A stretch of 57,719 bases of DNA from a virus, in IMG/VR virus record IMGVR_UViG_3300037963_001723, positions 1-57,719 of that record. One strand, written 5' to 3'. A model generated the notes under the pieces. It was given only the letters and a program-made list of their open reading frames with translations, did no database searches and was not told where the DNA came from. Below are positions 18,199 through 33,027 of this stretch, in pieces. Position 1 is the first letter of the stretch. Every line of letters begins with the position of its first letter. A program made the position numbers and the translations under genes.

Positions 18199-18575
18199 TG
18201 GAACAACTAAAATTATATCCCACAGCTGACGCAGTTATTAATGTAAATTTACACTCCAGCGGTGGAAAAATCTCGACCCCTGTTTTGAAAAAAAACTGGA
18301 TTTGCAAGAATGTGGGAAAGAAATTTTTTACAGTTCTTGATTATGAGAAATTAGAACAAGATGAAAATGAAAAGCCATTGATAAGAAATATCAACTGCCA
18401 AATAGCTGTTGATGATTTTCAAAGATTATCTAATGGAAAAGAATTAACCGAGAAACATTTAATGGTTAAAGATTTGAAACAGAATAATGGTTTCAAATTA
18501 TTAAGAATGGAATCCTTACTCGCCATAAAATTCAAAGGAGTAATTTTTAACTTTCCAAATAACGAGGTATCATAA
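18198..18575 (+). CDS. Unknown early protein, 125 aa
   Basis: A mixed alpha/beta protein without a recognised motif. The segment TPVLKKNWICKNVGKKFFTV is basic and aromatic, and the C-terminal half is helical. It overlaps genes on both sides by one base (TAATG arrangement), which ties it to the AAA+ ATPase directly downstream and suggests that it works with it. A TGTAAATTTACA palindrome lies inside the gene at 18242-18253. Confidence 0.65.
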   Translation: MEQLKLYPTADAVINVNLHSSGGKISTPVLKKNWICKNVGKKFFTVLDYEKLEQDENEKPLIRNINCQIAVDDFQRLSNGKELTEKHLMVKDLKQNNGFKLLRMESLLAIKFKGVIFNFPNNEVS

Positions 18576-19684
18576 TGGAAAACTTGAACGAACAGTCATT
18601 TAATATTTTAAATGCAAAAGACTCAGTTAAGAAAATTTTAACTGATAAAAAAACAAAGCATAAGCCATGCTTATTAAGAGGAGCTAGTGGGATTGGAAAA
18701 TCTGACTGCGTCAAACAACTTTGGTTAGATGAAGAAATAAATGGTGGATTGAAACCAACTACTAATTCTCAACCAAAGAAAAATGAATTTGCTCTTATCA
18801 CTCTGATAGGGAGTCAAATCGAACCGCAAGATTTATATTTGCCAAGATACGACTCCGAAACAGACACTCAGAAATATGCTTTCACAGACAGACTGCCAAA
18901 GGATAAAGACTCAAAAGGAATTTTGTTTCTTGATGAAATTGGTAGTGCGAGTCCAACTATTCAGAAAGCATTTCAACAATTAGTTCTAGCTAGAGAATTC
19001 AATGGCTATGTTCTTCCTGAGAATTTTGTAATTCTTGGAGCAACAAATAGACAAGAAGATAATGCTGGAGTCGGTGTTCAGAATTCTGCATTGATGAATA
19101 GGTTTCAAATATTTGATGTCGAAATGAATACTGACATTTGGCAAAAATGGGCTAGTGAAAATGGTGTTAATCCTCTAGTTCAAGCATACTTCAGATATGA
19201 ACCACAGAATCTTCACAACTTTACAAAGGACAAAAGGAATGAACAATTCTGTTCACCAAGAAGTGCTGTTACTCTTTCAGATTTAGTTTATCAGAATCAT
19301 GATGATTTAATTCAACTACCACTCTATACAGGTTGTGTCGGTTTTGATGTTGCTCAAAGTTTTATAGCGTTTTCAAAAGTTATTGTTAATGCTCCAAGCA
19401 TTGATGACATAATTGAAAAACCTATGGAAACAGAATCAATAGACCAAAATCAAACGAATGTAAGATTTGCTGTTGTTGGAGCTTTACTACAAAAGCTGAA
19501 AGAAAATTCAGGTAAGAAACAGGAAAAGATTTTCTCTAGTGCTACAAAATATTTAAGTAGATTTGAGAATCCTGAGTTCGTTATATTTTTTGTAAAACAA
19601 TCTATCAATATGGAAAGAGGATTATTAGTAACAAAAACTTATACTGATTTTTCTCTTGAACATACTGATGTTAATTTTGAATAG
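18575..19684 (+). CDS. MoxR-type AAA+ ATPase, 369 aa
   Basis: Walker A is GASGIGKS (residues 36-43), Walker B is GILFLDE (115-121) and sensor 1 is ILGATNR (153-159). The helix between them, SPTIQKAFQQLVLAREFNGY, is typical of the MoxR/chelatase branch. Such ATPases remodel partner proteins together with VWA proteins. Two genes downstream is a zincin-VWA protein, so this is probably the motor of that pair. It overlaps the upstream gene by one base. Confidence 0.85.
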   Translation: MENLNEQSFNILNAKDSVKKILTDKKTKHKPCLLRGASGIGKSDCVKQLWLDEEINGGLKPTTNSQPKKNEFALITLIGSQIEPQDLYLPRYDSETDTQKYAFTDRLPKDKDSKGILFLDEIGSASPTIQKAFQQLVLAREFNGYVLPENFVILGATNRQEDNAGVGVQNSALMNRFQIFDVEMNTDIWQKWASENGVNPLVQAYFRYEPQNLHNFTKDKRNEQFCSPRSAVTLSDLVYQNHDDLIQLPLYTGCVGFDVAQSFIAFSKVIVNAPSIDDIIEKPMETESIDQNQTNVRFAVVGALLQKLKENSGKKQEKIFSSATKYLSRFENPEFVIFFVKQSINMERGLLVTKTYTDFSLEHTDVNFE

Positions 19685-19694
19685 GGAGAAAAAA

Positions 19695-20672
19695 ATGCTT
19701 AGTAATAAATTTGATTTAACAGACTCATTTAGAGCCAAAGGTAAATTAGTTAAAGTTCAAACTAAAATTTGGGGTGGGAAAAAGCTATCTCCTGAATTAA
19801 GTTCCCATGTTGCTACCGCAGTTAGCGGTAGCGACAAATCTTTCAAGGTTAATAAATGTCTTATTGATGAAGATAGAATAAAAACCATGAGAGGAATTGA
19901 TAGGAAAAGAAGAAATGCTTTCAATCCATATGTTTGTATGTGGGATAGGGAATGGCAATTACTACCAAATAAGAATGAAGAAATAATAACTTCTGCTTGG
20001 AATGATTTTTCTAAAGAATTCAATGATGAAAAAGATAAGTTAGTAGCTGATTATCCTGATTTAAAAGAACAAGCGAAATTTGATTTAGGAGATTCTTACA
20101 ATGAAGATGATTACCCAACTATCGAAAGATTGAAAGGTGGCAAAGTTCAAGTAAGAATTGGCGGAACAGATTCCGAACCTGAGTATAAAGAAAAAGAGGT
20201 TAAAGGATTATTCCATGCTGACATTTTCTTTGACCAAGTGCCTGAGTTAAATATGGTAGAGGACAATGCTTACTACCAAGACTCAGGTATAGGTGGATTG
20301 ATTGGAAATGTTGCCTACAATTCTCACGAATATTATGAAGATAAAATCATAGAATTAAATCAGAGAAATAAACAAGATTTAATTTCTTCTCTCGGTGGTT
20401 TTGCTAATGCTATTAGCGGTTACGATAAATCCAATAAGAAAGGTAAGTTCTTCAAAAATTCTATTGTAGATAATTTAGAAAAATCTCTTAATGGATTGAA
20501 AGGTAAAAACGATTTCTTTGAAGATGACTATTATGATGAAATCATAGAACAAGCTAAAGAAATTGTTAAAGGTAAAACTGCTCAAGAGTTAAGAGAAGAT
20601 GATTCACTAAGAGAATCTGTAGCTGAAGAAATTAAAGGTTTAGAAACCAAAGCTACAGATATTTTCGGATAA
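19695..20672 (+). CDS. DUF3150-like partner of the AAA+/VWA module, 325 aa
   Basis: I start at ATG 19695 because AGGGAGAAAAAA precedes it; an upstream ATG at 19656 would overlap the ATPase gene. The N-terminus, KLVKVQTKIWGGKKLSPELS, resembles the opening of DUF3150 proteins, which in bacterial mobile elements sit between an AAA+ ATPase and a VWA/CobT-like protein. The rest is acidic and helical. The family call is tentative; the gene order supports it. Confidence 0.55.
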   Translation: MLSNKFDLTDSFRAKGKLVKVQTKIWGGKKLSPELSSHVATAVSGSDKSFKVNKCLIDEDRIKTMRGIDRKRRNAFNPYVCMWDREWQLLPNKNEEIITSAWNDFSKEFNDEKDKLVADYPDLKEQAKFDLGDSYNEDDYPTIERLKGGKVQVRIGGTDSEPEYKEKEVKGLFHADIFFDQVPELNMVEDNAYYQDSGIGGLIGNVAYNSHEYYEDKIIELNQRNKQDLISSLGGFANAISGYDKSNKKGKFFKNSIVDNLEKSLNGLKGKNDFFEDDYYDEIIEQAKEIVKGKTAQELREDDSLRESVAEEIKGLETKATDIFG

Positions 20673-20710
20673 TCCAAGTTAACTGGACTTACTTAAAAAA
20701 AGGAAAAAAA

Positions 20711-22003
20711 ATGATAAATGCAGACATAGAAATGAAAAAAGCTAAGACAAAAATTATTAGCAAACACTCAGGTTGGGCTACTATTGTGATACCTCTTAAT
20801 TTAGTTAAGACTGATGAAGTAGAGGTTATGGCTACAAATGGAAAATCTATTTTCTATAATCCAACAGCTATTGAAAAATGGTTTGAAGAAAATGGTAGAA
20901 GAAAAGGACAGGATTTTATTCAGACTGTTATTCTTCACGAGGTTCTTCATGTAGGTTGGCAACATTGTTTTCGTAAAGGTAATAGAGAACATGAATTATG
21001 GAATATAGCTACTGATTTGGTTATTAATTATCATCTTAGCGGAATTAGTAATAGCGATATGACTACCTCTTATGACCATTGTCTACAACATCTTGGTGGT
21101 TTAAGTATTTTTGATTATCGAGAATGGTTAGATAGTAAGAGAGATTTAAATTCTTATGGAGCAGAAGAATTATATTCTATTCTTCAGAAGAACCAAGATG
21201 AAGATACTCAAAAAAATAATGGTGGCGGTTATCATAATCCACAAGGAGATGAGATAACAGGACATAAAACATTAGGTGGCGAGGTTCAAGAATATGAGGG
21301 TAGCGAAGAAGAAAAACAAAAAGTTTCCCAAAATATTTCTGAAAGAATTATTCAATCTCATCAAGTTCAAAAAAAGGTTGGTGGCGGTAGTGATTTTCAA
21401 TCTATTGAAAAAGCTAGACAAGGACAAAAGAAACCTTTGGATTGGAGAGAAGTTTTAAGAGATAAAATTGCAAACCAAGTTCAAAGCGATTATCAATCTT
21501 ATGCTAGACCAAGCCGAAGATTTTTAGCTAATGGAGATTACTTACCTAGTAATGTTCCGACACCGAGTTTGAGTTTGGCTATTGGAATTGATATTTCAGG
21601 AAGTGTAGGTCTAGAAGAAAGACAACAATTCAATTCTGAGATTCAAAGAATTGCTGAAGATTTTCAGATTGAAAGAGTTCTTATTGCCTACATAAATGAA
21701 ACAACTGTTTGTCTTGATAAATCAAAAAGCGATACTGATTTGACTCGATTTTGGGATTGCTTTGAGTATGGCGAAGAAATAGAAACAAGAGATTTTATGA
21801 ATGGTGGAACAGAGTTCAAACCATTTTTTAATCTGATAGAAAGAACAGGAGAAGATGAAAATATTTCTTGTGCTATCTATTTCACAGACTGCTATGCCTA
21901 TGATTTAGAAGAAGAAGATGAACCAAATTATCCTGTGATATGGGCTACTACCTCTGCAAAACCGCCTGTGAATTGGGGAGAAGAAGTGAGGATAATAGAC
22001 TGA
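20711..22003 (+). CDS. Zincin-like metallopeptidase with VWA domain (DUF2201 type), 430 aa
   Basis: Residues 76-80 are HEVLH, a zinc-binding HExxH motif, followed by WNIATD near 97-102, where relatives have the third ligand Asp. A Gly/Glu-rich linker follows. From about 287 a VWA domain carries the MIDAS motif DISGS (294-298), a GGTEF threonine motif near 367 and a later FTD. Known members pair with MoxR ATPases. The start follows AAGGAAAAAAA. The target is unknown. Confidence 0.82.
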   Translation: MINADIEMKKAKTKIISKHSGWATIVIPLNLVKTDEVEVMATNGKSIFYNPTAIEKWFEENGRRKGQDFIQTVILHEVLHVGWQHCFRKGNREHELWNIATDLVINYHLSGISNSDMTTSYDHCLQHLGGLSIFDYREWLDSKRDLNSYGAEELYSILQKNQDEDTQKNNGGGYHNPQGDEITGHKTLGGEVQEYEGSEEEKQKVSQNISERIIQSHQVQKKVGGGSDFQSIEKARQGQKKPLDWREVLRDKIANQVQSDYQSYARPSRRFLANGDYLPSNVPTPSLSLAIGIDISGSVGLEERQQFNSEIQRIAEDFQIERVLIAYINETTVCLDKSKSDTDLTRFWDCFEYGEEIETRDFMNGGTEFKPFFNLIERTGEDENISCAIYFTDCYAYDLEEEDEPNYPVIWATTSAKPPVNWGEEVRIID

Positions 22004-28232: not shown

Positions 28233-28529
28233 ATGAACAACATTAACATAAAAATTGAAAGGAATCAAAAACCCACATCCCCTTTAGGAAAGGGGGGTAA
28301 AACCAGATGGAATTTACCTTTAGGTGAGCTTGAGCCACCTAGAAAAGACGAATCAGGAGAGTGGGTTTATGACAAGCTAAGAATAAGCATGACATATAAC
28401 GAAGCAGAAAAAAATATGTTTGCTGTCAGAAGCCATGTTTGGAGATGGAGAAAGAAAAATGATGAAAAAGCAAAATTTTCTGTAAACCACGGAGAAACAT
28501 CGGACATACTTATATGGAGGACAGAATAG
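28233..28529 (+). CDS. Unknown early protein, 98 aa
   Basis: The start follows GAGGAGATAAG. The protein is basic, with GKGGKTRWNLPLGELEPPRK early and then SMTYNEAEKNMFAVRSHVWR and a tryptophan-rich RWRKK segment. The spacing of hydrophobic and basic residues near 50-75 resembles a DNA-binding helix pair, but I cannot assign a family. It overlaps the nuclease gene by 16 bases. Confidence 0.6.
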   Translation: MNNINIKIERNQKPTSPLGKGGKTRWNLPLGELEPPRKDESGEWVYDKLRISMTYNEAEKNMFAVRSHVWRWRKKNDEKAKFSVNHGETSDILIWRTE

Positions 28530-29287
28530 CACATCGTACAAACAATAAAATGATACCTCTTGATATATTAAGAGGGATTCAATCTACATGGACACATAGT
28601 AAAGGTGACGCAGATTATTCTGTTACTGAACTATTAAGTCCACCAAAAGTTAGGGCTTTAAAGATAATTAATAAAGAAGATATAACAGAAGATTACTCTG
28701 ATTCTATTGCTACATTTATAGGAACATCTATTCATAAAACAATAGAAGATGCTAACAAAGATAAAGATGATTGTTTAACAGAAGAAAGAATGGAAGTTTC
28801 TATAAAAGCTGGAGACAAAACTATAACCATTTCTGGAACTGTAGACCATTATCATACAAGTAATCATCTATTAACTGATTATAAGACAACAGGCGCTTAT
28901 GGTATTAATTATGAAAAACCAGAATGGACACAACAATTAAATATATATAGATGGATGTTCAGTAAGGTTAAAGAAAAAGAAATGCCTGACGCTCAGATAA
29001 TTGCTATTTTGAAAGACTGGAGTAAACCAAGGTCAATAAATAGTAATACCTACCCACCTTCACCAGTTATGGTTAAACCAATCGCAAATTGGTCTGAGGA
29101 AGAAATAATAAAATTTATAATGGAAAGAATAGCCCTGCATGAAAAAGCTATAGAAAATCCACAGCAAATTTTATGTTCTGATGAAGAAAGGTGGCTTTCA
29201 CCAAAGGGTGTTTACAACAGATGTGAACACTATTGTAATGTTAATAAATTCTGTGACCAATATATAGGAGAGAAAAATGGCGAATGA
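28514..29287 (+). CDS. RecB/Cas4-like PD-(D/E)XK nuclease, 257 aa
   Basis: The nuclease core reads SGTVDHY (Asp), TDYKTT (D-x-K) and QQLNIYRWM (the QxxxY motif), near residues 115-160. C-terminal cysteines (LCSDEERW, then CEHYCNVNKFC) fit an iron-sulfur cluster like that of Cas4/AddB. It would resect DNA ends to feed RecT, whose gene overlaps by 11 bases. ATG 28514 lacks a good ribosome site and is probably coupled. Confidence 0.82.
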   Translation: MEDRIAHRTNNKMIPLDILRGIQSTWTHSKGDADYSVTELLSPPKVRALKIINKEDITEDYSDSIATFIGTSIHKTIEDANKDKDDCLTEERMEVSIKAGDKTITISGTVDHYHTSNHLLTDYKTTGAYGINYEKPEWTQQLNIYRWMFSKVKEKEMPDAQIIAILKDWSKPRSINSNTYPPSPVMVKPIANWSEEEIIKFIMERIALHEKAIENPQQILCSDEERWLSPKGVYNRCEHYCNVNKFCDQYIGEKNGE

Positions 29288-30194
29288 ATTAAGTAAGATG
29301 TCTGGAATGACACCAAGCACATTTAATGAAGCAAAAGAATATGCACAATTAATATCTAAATCTGATTTTGTTCCAAGAGAATATAAGAACAAACCAGCTG
29401 AAATATTAATTTGTATACAAATGGGCGCTGAATTAGGATTAAAACCTATCCAGGCGCTTCAAAATATTGCTGTAATAAATGGTAAACCATCAATTTATGG
29501 AGATAGTGCTATTGCATTATGTAGAACTAATCCAGATTTTGCTGGTATAGAAGAAAAAGTTGAAGGAACTGGAGATAATAGAAAAGCTACTTGTACTGTT
29601 AAAAGAAAATTAAAAGCTACTGGAGAGATAGAAGTAACTATAAGGACATTTAGTATGCAAGAAGCTAAACAAGCTAACCTTTCATCAAGAGGCCCTTGGA
29701 AAAGCTATCCAGATAGAATGTTACAAATGAGGGCAAGAGGTTTTGCATTAAGAGACTCTTTCCCTGATTCTTTAAAAGCATTAATAACAACAGAAGAAGC
29801 AGCAGATTACCCATCAGAAGAAAATAAAACTACAGTTGAAGTAGAAATACCCAAACAGAATGGTTTTGATACAGAATCTTTAATGGAAGAAGCTGAAGAA
29901 CTGACTCCTGTTCAACCAACAGACGAACAAGTTGAAGCTGAAGAAGTTGAGCCAGAAAGTGACTTTGATCCAAACAGTGGGGTAGTTACCTCTTATAGAG
30001 AAGCTGTAATGTTTCACGATATGATTAAAGCATTAGTTCCAGAAATTGATAATTTAGAAGAATTAACTGATTTATGGAAAAACAATAAAGATCAGTTTGA
30101 AAGAGTTAATGCTTTAGCAGAACCTAACTACAAAGAAATATTAGAATTATTTAAACAACAAAAAGCTAAGATAAAAGGAGAAAACAATGGCTAA
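29277..30194 (+). CDS. recT: RecT-family single-strand annealing protein, 305 aa
   Basis: The core IQMGAELGLKPIQALQNIAV then GKPSIYGDSAIALCRTNPDF and YPDRMLQMRARGFALRDSFP are the standard RecT signatures. The C-terminal 100 residues are acidic and less conserved. RecT anneals single strands made by the partner nuclease upstream. GGAGAG lies before the ATG. It overlaps the next gene by eight bases. Confidence 0.9.
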   Translation: MANELSKMSGMTPSTFNEAKEYAQLISKSDFVPREYKNKPAEILICIQMGAELGLKPIQALQNIAVINGKPSIYGDSAIALCRTNPDFAGIEEKVEGTGDNRKATCTVKRKLKATGEIEVTIRTFSMQEAKQANLSSRGPWKSYPDRMLQMRARGFALRDSFPDSLKALITTEEAADYPSEENKTTVEVEIPKQNGFDTESLMEEAEELTPVQPTDEQVEAEEVEPESDFDPNSGVVTSYREAVMFHDMIKALVPEIDNLEELTDLWKNNKDQFERVNALAEPNYKEILELFKQQKAKIKGENNG

Positions 30195-30504
30195 ATATGA
30201 CACAACACTACAAACGGAAGGCGCTATCTTTTTAAATGGTTATAAAGATAACGCAAAAAAACCTGACTATTTAGGTAGTATTAAAATAAATAGACAGCAA
30301 ATTAAGGCGATGGCCGAAATCGCTAAAGGCAATAACCTTGAAGAAGTAGAATGTAAAATTGCTTTATGGAACAGAGAAGCTAGAGAATCTGGCAAGAAAT
30401 ATAAATATTGTAAGTTTGAAGTTCCACAGGATGCTGTTAAAGAAGAATCACCTGCACAGGAAATTTCTACACCTGCTCCAGATGATGATATTCCTTGGGA
30501 GTAA
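30187..30504 (+). CDS. SSB-like or recombination-associated protein, 105 aa
   Basis: The first 80 residues are a compact beta-rich domain (EGAIFLNGYKDNAKKPDYLG, then QIKAMAEIAKG and EVECKIALWNREA). The last 20 are disordered and acidic and end DDDIPWE. That end closely resembles the DDDIPF tail of single-strand binding proteins, which recruits replication partners. Position after RecT agrees. GGAGAAAACA precedes the start. Confidence 0.6.
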   Translation: MAKYDTTLQTEGAIFLNGYKDNAKKPDYLGSIKINRQQIKAMAEIAKGNNLEEVECKIALWNREARESGKKYKYCKFEVPQDAVKEESPAQEISTPAPDDDIPWE

Positions 30505-30768: not shown

Positions 30769-30823
30769 TAGTCAAAGAGTTTAGAACATCACACAAATGA
30801 ACGCTAATAAAGGGAGAGAAAAA

Positions 30824-31654
30824 ATGCGTGCGCAAACCACATTAACGCCAGTTAAAAAAATGGAAAAAGACATCTTAAACACTGCTAAGGCTTTTAATGA
30901 AACAGAAATAAGAGTTTTAGTAGATAGATATTATCAAACACAAGAAAACAGAAAGAGAAGTGCGAATCAGTTAAGAGCTGCAATAGAAGATGGAGAGGAG
31001 TGTACTGCTCTTACATATCTTCTTGAGCAAGATAAACTTATTGAAAATCAAATTAAAAAGTTTCTTACTGAATTTTCTAATTCTCATAAAGTAGGTAGAT
31101 GGTGTATGGCTAATTACGGTATAGGTGGTGTAATAACTGCTGGGTTATTAGCTCATATAGATATAAAAAAAGCTCCTACAGCTGGTCATATTTGGAATTA
31201 CGCTGGATTAAATCCTGATCAAGTATGGAAAAAGGGAAGTAAAAGACCTTGGAATGCTCAGTTAAAAACGCTTTGTTGGAAGATAGGGGAAAGTTTTGTT
31301 AAAGTTTCCAATCAAGATGAGGCATTTTATGGTCAATTATATTCTCAAAGAAAAGAATTAGAAGTTAATAAAAACGCTTCTGGTCAATATAAAGACCATG
31401 CAGAAAAACAATTAAAAGAAAAAAATTATAATAAATCTACTGTAGCTTATAAACATTACATAAAAGGGGAACTACCTCCAGGTCATGTTCATGCAATAGC
31501 TAAGAGATGGACTGTTAAATTGTTTTTAAGTCACTTACATTATATTTGGTATCAACATGAGCACAGCGACACCCCTCCCCAACCTTATGCGCTGGCCCAA
31601 CTAGGGCATGCTCATTTGATAGAACCCCCTATTAGTCTTGAGGACATTGATTGA
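30824..31654 (+). CDS. Orphan IS110-type C-terminal domain protein (Transposase_20-like), 276 aa
   Basis: I start at ATG 30824, preceded by AAGGGAGAGAAAAA; the frame is open to 30797. Residues about 10-85 are a helical arm. Then WCMANYGIGGVITAGLLAHI, HIWNYAGLNPDQVWKKGSKR and NAQLKTLCWKIGESFVK follow the IS110/IS116/IS902 C-terminal domain, with its helix-hairpin-helix. The N-terminal RuvC-like DEDD domain is absent. There are no inverted repeats nearby. It is probably a domesticated recombination protein, not an active element. Confidence 0.7.
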   Translation: MRAQTTLTPVKKMEKDILNTAKAFNETEIRVLVDRYYQTQENRKRSANQLRAAIEDGEECTALTYLLEQDKLIENQIKKFLTEFSNSHKVGRWCMANYGIGGVITAGLLAHIDIKKAPTAGHIWNYAGLNPDQVWKKGSKRPWNAQLKTLCWKIGESFVKVSNQDEAFYGQLYSQRKELEVNKNASGQYKDHAEKQLKEKNYNKSTVAYKHYIKGELPPGHVHAIAKRWTVKLFLSHLHYIWYQHEHSDTPPQPYALAQLGHAHLIEPPISLEDID

Positions 31655-31720: not shown

Positions 31721-32107
31721 ATGAGTAAAAATAAAAAAGTTGAAGCATTTATATATAATGCTGAATTAGAAAGAGTTGTTGATGGCGATACTATAGATAT
31801 TACTATTGACCTTGGCTTTAATGTTAAACTACATAAACAAAGATGTCGTTTAGCTGGTATAGACACACCAGAATCCAGAACTAAAGATTTAGCTGAGAAA
31901 GCATTAGGTAAGAAAGCATCCGCAAGATTAAAAGAGTTATGTGGAAAAAAATTAAAGATTAAATCATTAGGTAAAGGAAAGTATGGAAGAATATTAGCAA
32001 TACCATACACAGAAGATGGCCAAGATATTTGTAAAATACTAATTGAAGAAGGTCATGCTGTTGAGTATCACGGTGGAACTAAAGTAAAAGTATGGGGGGA
32101 TTACTAA
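31721..32107 (+). CDS. Staphylococcal-nuclease-like (thermonuclease) protein, 128 aa
   Basis: VVDGDTID holds the first acidic site, RCRLAGIDTPES holds the Arg, Asp, Thr and Glu of the active site, and KYGRILAI the second Arg, so all key residues of the SNase fold are kept. There is no signal peptide, unlike secreted homologues, so it should act in the host cytoplasm, perhaps on host DNA. AAGGAGAAAAAA precedes the start. Its stop overlaps the next ATG by one base. Confidence 0.85.
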   Translation: MSKNKKVEAFIYNAELERVVDGDTIDITIDLGFNVKLHKQRCRLAGIDTPESRTKDLAEKALGKKASARLKELCGKKLKIKSLGKGKYGRILAIPYTEDGQDICKILIEEGHAVEYHGGTKVKVWGDY

Positions 32108-32274
32108 TGAAAAAAGAACCAATATTTAAATGGCATGAAAAACTATTAATGTATTTTGTAGCTCTTGTTGTCATAGCATTTATAATTATAATGCAAGATG
32201 TTAAGGCAGAACGAGAAAAGAGCGAAAAGATAAAAGAGTGTGTTCAGTTTTTAGAAGATAATCAAATAGAATAA
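32107..32274 (+). CDS. Small membrane protein, 55 aa
   Basis: ATG 32107 overlaps the stop of the nuclease gene; a longer frame from 32092 would run inside that gene. The sequence has a short basic N-terminus, a membrane span (LLMYFVALVVIAFIIIM) and a charged helical C-terminus (VKAEREKSEKIKECVQFLED). The stop codon TAA (32272-32274) is also the first three bases of the 34-bp array, so the array begins exactly where coding ends. Confidence 0.65.
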   Translation: MKKEPIFKWHEKLLMYFVALVVIAFIIIMQDVKAEREKSEKIKECVQFLEDNQIE

Positions 32275-32620
32275 ACATCAACATCCAAGAATGAGCCAAT
32301 GCCGATGAACATCATTTCGATCGAACGAATCATGGACTGCGAACATCACAACATATAAATGAACCAGAGGAGTTAAACATCAAATTTTGCGAATGAATCA
32401 TAATTAATAAACATCAAATGAATAGAATGAATCACTAGTCATGAACATCAAGTGATAAGAATGAATCAGGACAAATGAACATCAATAAAAATAAATGAAT
32501 CAATATCAACGAACATCATGGCTAATAAATGAACCAACATACCTGAACTTTATTATATCATAGTGAACCAATGTGGATAAACATCATATCGCTCGAGTGA
32601 ACCACGGACTTTGAACTTCA
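32272..32620. repeat. Phased 34-bp array of two alternating motifs, 10.5 units
   Basis: Each unit is motif A (TGAACATCA or TAAACATCA, 9 bases), 10 variable bases, motif B (ATGAATCA, ATGAACCA or GTGAACCA, 8 bases) and 7 variable bases. Units start at 32272, 32306, 32340, 32374, 32408, 32442, 32476, 32510, 32544, 32578 and 32612 without any slip; the last has only motif A. Both motifs have TGA...TCA-like arms. Thirty-four is not a multiple of three and all frames have stops, so it is non-coding. It fits a multi-site protein-binding array such as an iteron origin or partition site. Confidence 0.9.
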
Positions 32621-32946
32621 TTAGAGGCAAGTGCCTTTTTATAGCCATAATTAGCTTAGATTCCTATGCTGAAAAAAAATGTAAAGTCAATCTTCTAATT
32701 ATAGATTAGACCCCCTACTTATTTACTGGGTGGTTTTCTTTTTTTTAAGGAGAAAACCATGGGAGTAGAAATTCTTCATAATTAATAAAGAAAGAAAACA
32801 CTTACTAGTGAACATTATAAGTTTATTAGTGGTGTGTGCTTACGAGTTAACGCTCGACTACGATATTCGTAATTTCATGGATATTGATTGCGCTATAACT
32901 TGTGGCACAAGAAGAAAACTAAATAACGAATTAGAAGGAGAAACAT
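32621..32946 (+). other. Non-coding stretch after the array, with a weak terminator and an 8-codon frame
   Basis: ACCCCCT (32710-32716) can pair imperfectly with GGGTGGT (32728-32734) and a T-rich run follows, a weak terminator candidate. TTTAAGGAGAAAACC then leads to ATG 32759 with eight codons (MGVEILHN, stop at 32783-32785), a possible leader peptide. The remainder, 32786-32946, has no frame of note and ends in GAAGGAG, the ribosome site of the next gene. Confidence 0.4.
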
Positions 32947-33027
32947 ATGACTTTTACTAAATTCTTATCAATGATAATGGTTATCCAACTTCTTGGTGTG
33001 ACTTTGTTTACTATAATTGTTGGCTAA
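32947..33027 (+). CDS. Tiny membrane peptide, 26 aa
   Basis: ATG 32947 follows TAGAAGGAGAAACAT, a strong ribosome site. The product MTFTKFLSMIMVIQLLGVTL then FTIIVG is one membrane-spanning helix with a basic N-terminal end. It is the last plus-strand gene before the minus-strand tail module. The function is unknown. Confidence 0.6.
   Translation: MTFTKFLSMIMVIQLLGVTLFTIIVG

What the first reader, a model, noticed from the sequence alone, without database searches (positions are those of the whole stretch)
32272..32620. Exact 34-bp-period array built from two alternating motifs
Ten full units and a half unit keep the same architecture: motif A (TGAACATCA-type), 10 free bases, motif B (RTGAAYCA-type), 7 free bases. 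Spacing never slips while the filler sequence is free to change, so selection acts on the two short sites and their phase, not on an ordinary duplicated repeat. It begins exactly at the last stop codon of the early operon and ends before the weak terminator. An iteron-like replication origin, a partition or packaging locus, or a titration array for a host factor would all fit. I know of no phage element with this two-motif layout.
Basis: seen in the sequence. Interest (0 to 1): 0.88.

Follow-up and report, generated by a model that had tools for sequence, protein, structure and literature searches.

The report
Phage TIGR guide-RNA array beside tas
The repeat array is a TIGR array, a recently described CRISPR-like string of tiny paired guides, sitting in a marine-type phage next to the gene for its RNA-guided DNA-binding partner; the kind of system is known, but these arrays give fresh natural evidence about it and a first, unproven lead to what such phages may target.

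Summary
Eleven units keep an exact 34-bp period (z = 11.2; best of 60 shuffles 5.6), with two conserved blocks and free filler. The proposed functions (replication origin, partition or packaging locus, titration array) are not supported. The block is a TIGR array: edge repeat RARTGAAYCA, 8-nt spacer A, loop repeat RAACATCA, 8-nt spacer B. It is the 3' part of the early operon that also encodes a Tas protein (30797-31654), which scores 193.7 bits against NCBIfam TIGR_Tas (cut-off 100); TasH and TasR are its only Foldseek hits in PDB at E<=0.001. Four other phages carry the same array at the same place, one of them twice; more distant phages have a period-34/35/36 array next to a Tas homologue. 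One base pair that should exist only in the processed guide RNA covaries between consecutive edge repeats (p = 4e-5) and not within one edge (p = 1.0). The Tas protein has no recognisable nuclease, so I infer RNA-guided DNA binding without cutting (TasA type). Natural targets stay open: no self-targets, and one weak lead to marine T4-like phages. New member of a known kind.

The parts
32255..32638 (+). TIGR (dual-repeat) array: 11 units of 34 nt, from a degenerate first edge to a 3'-truncated edge
   Evidence: unit table; period and motif statistics
32289..32298 (+). first well-formed edge repeat (GAATGAGCCA); further edges every 34 nt to 32595-32604
   Evidence: consensus RARTGAAYCA over 52 units of 6 arrays
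32273..32280 (+). first loop repeat (AAACATCA); further loops every 34 nt to 32613-32620
   Evidence: consensus RAACATCA
32265..32628 (+). 22 spacers of 8 nt (A after the edge, B after the loop), alternating between the repeats
   Evidence: spacer columns mostly carry 0.05-0.4 bits against 1-2 bits in most repeat columns
32623..32642 (+). intrinsic terminator stem-loop AGAGGC-AAGT-GCCUUU, then U-rich tail; overlaps the last spacer B and truncated edge
   Evidence: fold (-6.6 kcal/mol, weak here; -16 to -22 in the five other arrays)
30797..31654 (+). tas gene, 285 aa, Nop-domain protein of the TIGR-Tas family, no recognisable nuclease (TasA type)
   Evidence: NCBIfam NF052498.1 193.7 bits, cut-off 100; all 20 aligned relatives match it; PDB profile search; AlphaFold pLDDT 87, Foldseek top ten all TasH/TasR
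31721..32107 (+). SNase-type nuclease gene between tas and the array
   Evidence: Pfam PF00565 51.3 bits
32092..32274 (+). 60-aa ORF; its stop codon lies at the first loop repeat
   Evidence: 81% identical over 54 aa in G001
32673..32696 (.). 24-mer AAAAAAATGTAAWGTCAATCTTCT downstream of the array terminator, conserved in the related phages; the minus strand reads TTGAC[AT] like a -35 box
   Evidence: exactly one hit in the window and in four related contigs, none elsewhere in viral contigs
28233..30504 (+). upstream part of the same operon: 98-aa protein, exonuclease, RecT, 105-aa protein
   Evidence: PHROG matches for the exonuclease and RecT; homologues in G001-G004 for all except RecT, which had no ORF match

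Best explanation
The array is the TIGR array of a TIGR-Tas system. It is transcribed rightwards as the 3' end of the early operon exonuclease-RecT-tas-SNase-60aa-array-terminator. A host RNase, with Tas bound, cuts the transcript inside each edge repeat into guide RNAs of about 34 nt: half edge, spacer A, loop, spacer B, half edge. A dimer of the 285-aa Tas protein holds one guide. Spacer A pairs with one strand of a target DNA and spacer B with the other, side by side. This Tas lacks a recognisable nuclease, so it most likely binds and bends the target, blocking its transcription or replication rather than cutting it. The likely opponents are other mobile elements competing for the cell. Shown here: array architecture, strand, linkage to tas, Tas family and fold, and the covarying edge pair. 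Inferred: transcription, processing, DNA binding, lack of cutting, and the class of target. The confidence given is for the identity (TIGR array plus Tas); I hold about 0.6 for binding without cutting and about 0.5 for rival mobile elements as targets.
For: Tas protein next to the array: NF052498.1, 193.7 bits; TasR and TasH are the best PDB profile hits (5.6e-25, 1e-16) and the only Foldseek hits with E<=0.001. Of 41 Tas relatives in IMG/VR, most have a period-34/35/36 array beside the gene. Three distant phages (L190-L192, Tas 47-48% identical) have the same 34-nt unit and an identical loop GAACATCA; L190 is visibly GC-rich. Three independent DNA patterns over the array and its flank retrieve the same related contigs and no others. 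Layout matches the published description (5'-truncated first edge, 3'-truncated last edge, terminator). Edge base 8 pairs with base 3 of the NEXT edge: T-A 29, C-G 13, T-G 9, C-A 2, p = 4e-5; same-edge control p = 1.0. The array RNA folds worse than all 100 shuffles (z = +2.6), as expected of an open guide precursor. SpTIGR of Salicola phage CGphi29 has edge RAGCGAGYCA and 8-nt spacers.
Against: No transcription or processing data. The published guides are 36 nt; 34 is extrapolated from the period. No natural target was established: no excess in the own or related genomes. The Pfam test for HNH is blind: it also misses the HNH of Salicola TasH, so 'no nuclease' rests on the missing N-terminal half and the changed histidines in the alignment. 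In the two closest phages by Tas (L175/L176) the array has collapsed. In G002 tas reads as interrupted, with N bases and a frame change, possibly an assembly fault.
Confidence: 0.94

Rival explanations
1. Iteron-type replication origin or partition/packaging site: a protein binds the two DNA motifs in phase.
For: Regular non-coding array between convergent operons.
Against: The covarying pair links neighbouring units as in an RNA; five of six arrays start at a stop codon and all six end at a terminator; one phage has two; no skew switch beyond gene direction; Tas genes accompany the arrays in unrelated phages.
Confidence: 0.02
2. RNA antitoxin or anti-toxin decoy of the type III (ToxIN-like) kind, or a sponge for an RNA-binding protein.
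For: Tandem RNA repeats of about 34 nt ending at a terminator; phages are known to carry such decoys (own knowledge).
Against: The filler is free and the RNA folds worse than shuffles, whereas ToxI units are near-identical and fold; no toxin recognised next to the array; Tas is present.
Confidence: 0.02
3. TIGR array whose Tas still cuts DNA, through a divergent or partner nuclease (for example the SNase encoded next to it).
For: NCBIfam calls the family an endonuclease; an SNase gene lies between tas and the array.
Against: Only about 15 disordered residues precede the part alignable to TasH, and the TasH histidines are K and D here. SNase is common in phages (one search shows it in cyanophages) and need not be linked.
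Confidence: 0.1
4. Targets are the host chromosome or the phage's own genes (gene regulation or guided recombination, given the RecT/exonuclease neighbours).
For: Early-operon neighbours; Tas relatives are predicted to bend DNA (PMC12045711).
Confidence: 0.2

Closest known systems
TIGR-TasH of Salicola phage CGphi29 (SpTIGR; PMC12045711)
   Same: Array 3' of the effector gene, edge RAGCGAGYCA, 8-nt spacers, box D 'RA' and box C 'YCA' in both repeats, ends at a terminator; protein 26.8% identical over 92%.
   Different: Period 36 (10-nt loop AAGACAACCA) against 34 (8-nt loop RAACATCA); N-terminal HNH present there, absent here.
TIGR-TasA systems (PMC12045711)
   Same: Nop-domain effector without a nuclease, dual-repeat array, mostly in mobile elements.
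   Different: Sequence of repeats; unit length; the authors' loci were not compared one by one.
TIGR-TasR (TaTasR, PDB 9mty)
   Same: Nop/coiled-coil fold (Foldseek E about 5e-7), dual-repeat array.
   Different: RuvC domain at its N terminus; boxes UG/CCA; 9-nt spacers.
IS110/IS621 transposases and box C/D Nop5
   Same: Shared Nop-type RNA-binding domain.
   Different: No DEDD domain here, no bridge RNA, no fibrillarin.

Membership tests
TIGR-Tas | Tas protein with Nop domain encoded close to the array | tested here: met
   NF052498.1 193.7 bits vs cut-off 100; Foldseek top ten = TasH/TasR
TIGR-Tas | Two different alternating repeats of 8-12 nt | tested here: met
   10-nt RARTGAAYCA and 8-nt RAACATCA
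TIGR-Tas | Short variable spacers A and B (9 nt; 8+8 in SpTIGR; up to 12) | tested here: met
   8+8 nt; 16 nt total as in SpTIGR
TIGR-Tas | 5'-truncated first edge, 3'-truncated last edge followed by intrinsic terminator | tested here: met
   (terminator in the window is weak)
TIGR-Tas | Box C/D motifs shared by edge and loop, and a covarying extra edge pair across one guide | tested here: met
   RA ... YCA in both; next-edge covariation p = 4e-5, same-edge p = 1.0
TIGR-Tas | Transcription and processing into about 36-nt tigRNA with Tas | not testable with these tools
   needs small-RNA sequencing
TIGR-Tas | Tandem-spacer DNA targeting | tested here: inconclusive
   no self-target excess; one spacer pair has a repeated hit in a T4-like gene family, two others none
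TasH / TasR (nuclease types) | N-terminal HNH or RuvC | tested here: not met
   N terminus too short; TasH histidines replaced; Pfam is not informative here
CRISPR | One repeat of 25-36 nt with spacers of similar length, cas genes | tested here: not met
   two 8-10-nt repeats, 8-nt spacers; no Cas effector among genes scanned
Type III toxin-antitoxin RNA | Near-identical structured repeats plus toxin gene | tested here: not met
   filler free, RNA less folded than shuffles; no toxin recognised in the neighbours scanned

The most novel reading that the evidence does not exclude
The paired 8-nt spacers are an inter-phage weapon aimed at conserved coding sites of rival phages in the same water (for example the peptidase/VWA gene of marine T4-like phages), binding without cutting, and the arrays follow silent codon changes of their targets.
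Probability: 0.15. Interest if true: 0.8.

Novelty: new member of a known kind. Interest (0 to 1): 0.5.

Why it matters
The biology of TIGR-Tas is open: natural targets, spacer origin and the role of nuclease-free TasA are all unknown (PMC12045711). Here is a small phage group with a TasA-type locus, six comparable arrays, shared and diverging spacer pairs, one array duplicated at a second site and one collapsed. That is material for asking how spacers change and what they hit. The edge-to-next-edge covariation, seen in natural sequence, supports the guide RNA model independently of the TasR structure.

Tried and rejected
RecT as anchor to find relatives: no locus. Rfam: no family. The nearest cultured relatives by terminase (HTVC023P, HTVC027P, DSL-LC04, 023Pt_psg01) show no period-34 array. 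Targets in own and related genomes: 9 one-mismatch hits for the predicted geometry against 2, 14 and 8 in three control geometries, so no signal. In the 120 loci fetched by the P2 pattern: 28 one-mismatch hits against 14-20 in controls and shuffles, weak and driven by AT-rich pairs. Codon-phase test on diverging spacer pairs: 52 of 172 site pairs concordant, the chance level, so the apparent wobble-position changes in a few shared spacers are not supported as a general rule. P3 target: scattered. Iteron, ToxIN-like and LexA-box ideas dropped for the reasons given under rivals.

Full report
What is in the sequence. From 32255 to 32638 (+) the window holds eleven 34-nt units without a slip: edge RARTGAAYCA, 8-nt spacer A, loop RAACATCA, 8-nt spacer B, then a truncated edge inside a terminator hairpin. 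The period is far beyond chance: z = 11.2 against at most 5.6 in 60 shuffles. The array begins at the stop codon of a 60-aa ORF and lies between the early rightward operon and the convergent late genes.

Related phages. The window is an IMG/VR virus record. Three patterns (loop-edge-loop, edge-loop-edge, and a conserved 24-mer past the terminator) all return the same four other contigs. These share most structural genes with the window at 55-99% and early genes at about 25-65% identity (G004 is a 19-kb fragment). All carry the array 3' of tas; G001 has a second array 9 kb away, also between a stop codon and a strong terminator. In G004 the array overlaps an ORF instead of following a stop codon. 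Spacer units are partly shared between phages and stand at different positions in the arrays.

The protein. Gene 30797-31654 matches NCBIfam TIGR_Tas (193.7 bits, cut-off 100), as do all 20 aligned relatives. Its profile finds TasR and TasH in PDB first and IS110-type transposases far behind. The AlphaFold model (pLDDT 87) matches only TasH and TasR chains at E<=0.001. It lacks a RuvC domain. Against TasH only the end of the HNH region aligns, with both histidines replaced. I read it as TasA type.

Independent test of linkage. Searching IMG/VR with the Tas alignment gave 41 loci; most have a period-34/35/36 array beside the gene. Edges across this set follow RARYGARYCA. L190 is visibly GC-rich and has GAGCGAGCCA-N8-GAACATCA-N8; L191 and L192 share the loop. 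The Salicola phage reference array has the same edge form and 8-nt spacers.

Independent test of the RNA model. The published structure has an extra covarying pair between the two half edges of one guide. In the six arrays, edge base 8 and base 3 of the next edge give 29 T-A, 13 C-G, 9 T-G and 2 C-A (Fisher p = 4e-5), while the same two positions within one edge are independent (p = 1.0). Related units are not fully independent, so the p value is approximate. This fixes the sense strand as plus and places the cut inside the edge. The array RNA is less folded than every shuffle.

Targets. From the 3' overhang and the cleavage rule in the paper I derived the target order spacer A followed by the reverse complement of spacer B, with a gap of 0-2. 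No excess of such sites exists in the own or related genomes. One shared pair (CCAACWGC with CAAAATAT) hits, in viral contigs, at least 30 members of one gene family in the same frame, the IPTAYFD segment of the peptidase/VWA protein of marine T4-like phages. I treat it as a lead only. A test for codon-phase agreement in diverging spacers was at chance level.

Verdict. TIGR array of a TasA-type TIGR-Tas system: identity close to certain on sequence evidence; activity and targets not shown.

Noticed in passing
L175 5750-6120 (and L176): The two phages with the closest Tas (72%) keep tas, the neighbouring small ORF region and the downstream flank, but the array has collapsed to about two remnant loops; no second array found in their contigs.
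   Followed up: partly
G002 contig about 27480-28200: The tas reading frame is interrupted by N bases and a frame change while the adjacent array is intact; assembly fault or real decay not resolved.
   Followed up: partly
window 32947-33027: A 26-aa hydrophobic peptide (MTFTKFLSMIMVIQLLGVTLFTIIVG) is conserved in L175, L002 and L003 downstream of the array.
   Followed up: no
window 32673-32696: Conserved 24-mer past the array terminator; its minus strand carries TTGAC[AT], possibly a promoter firing back through the array or for the late genes.
   Followed up: no
L005 8983-9171: In G004 a 62-aa ORF reads from upstream through the first units of the array with a plausible hydrophilic sequence.
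   Followed up: no
window 18575-22003: AAA ATPase followed, after one unassigned ORF, by a DUF2201 metallopeptidase/VWA protein in the early region, kept in the related phages at about 30-37% identity.
   Followed up: no
MN698239.1 12470-12570 (HTVC023P): A short near-exact non-coding repeat (AATCTTGAGAATACATACCGAAAATTTTTTGCA, period about 33) in Pelagibacter phage HTVC023P; no dual-repeat structure.
   Followed up: no
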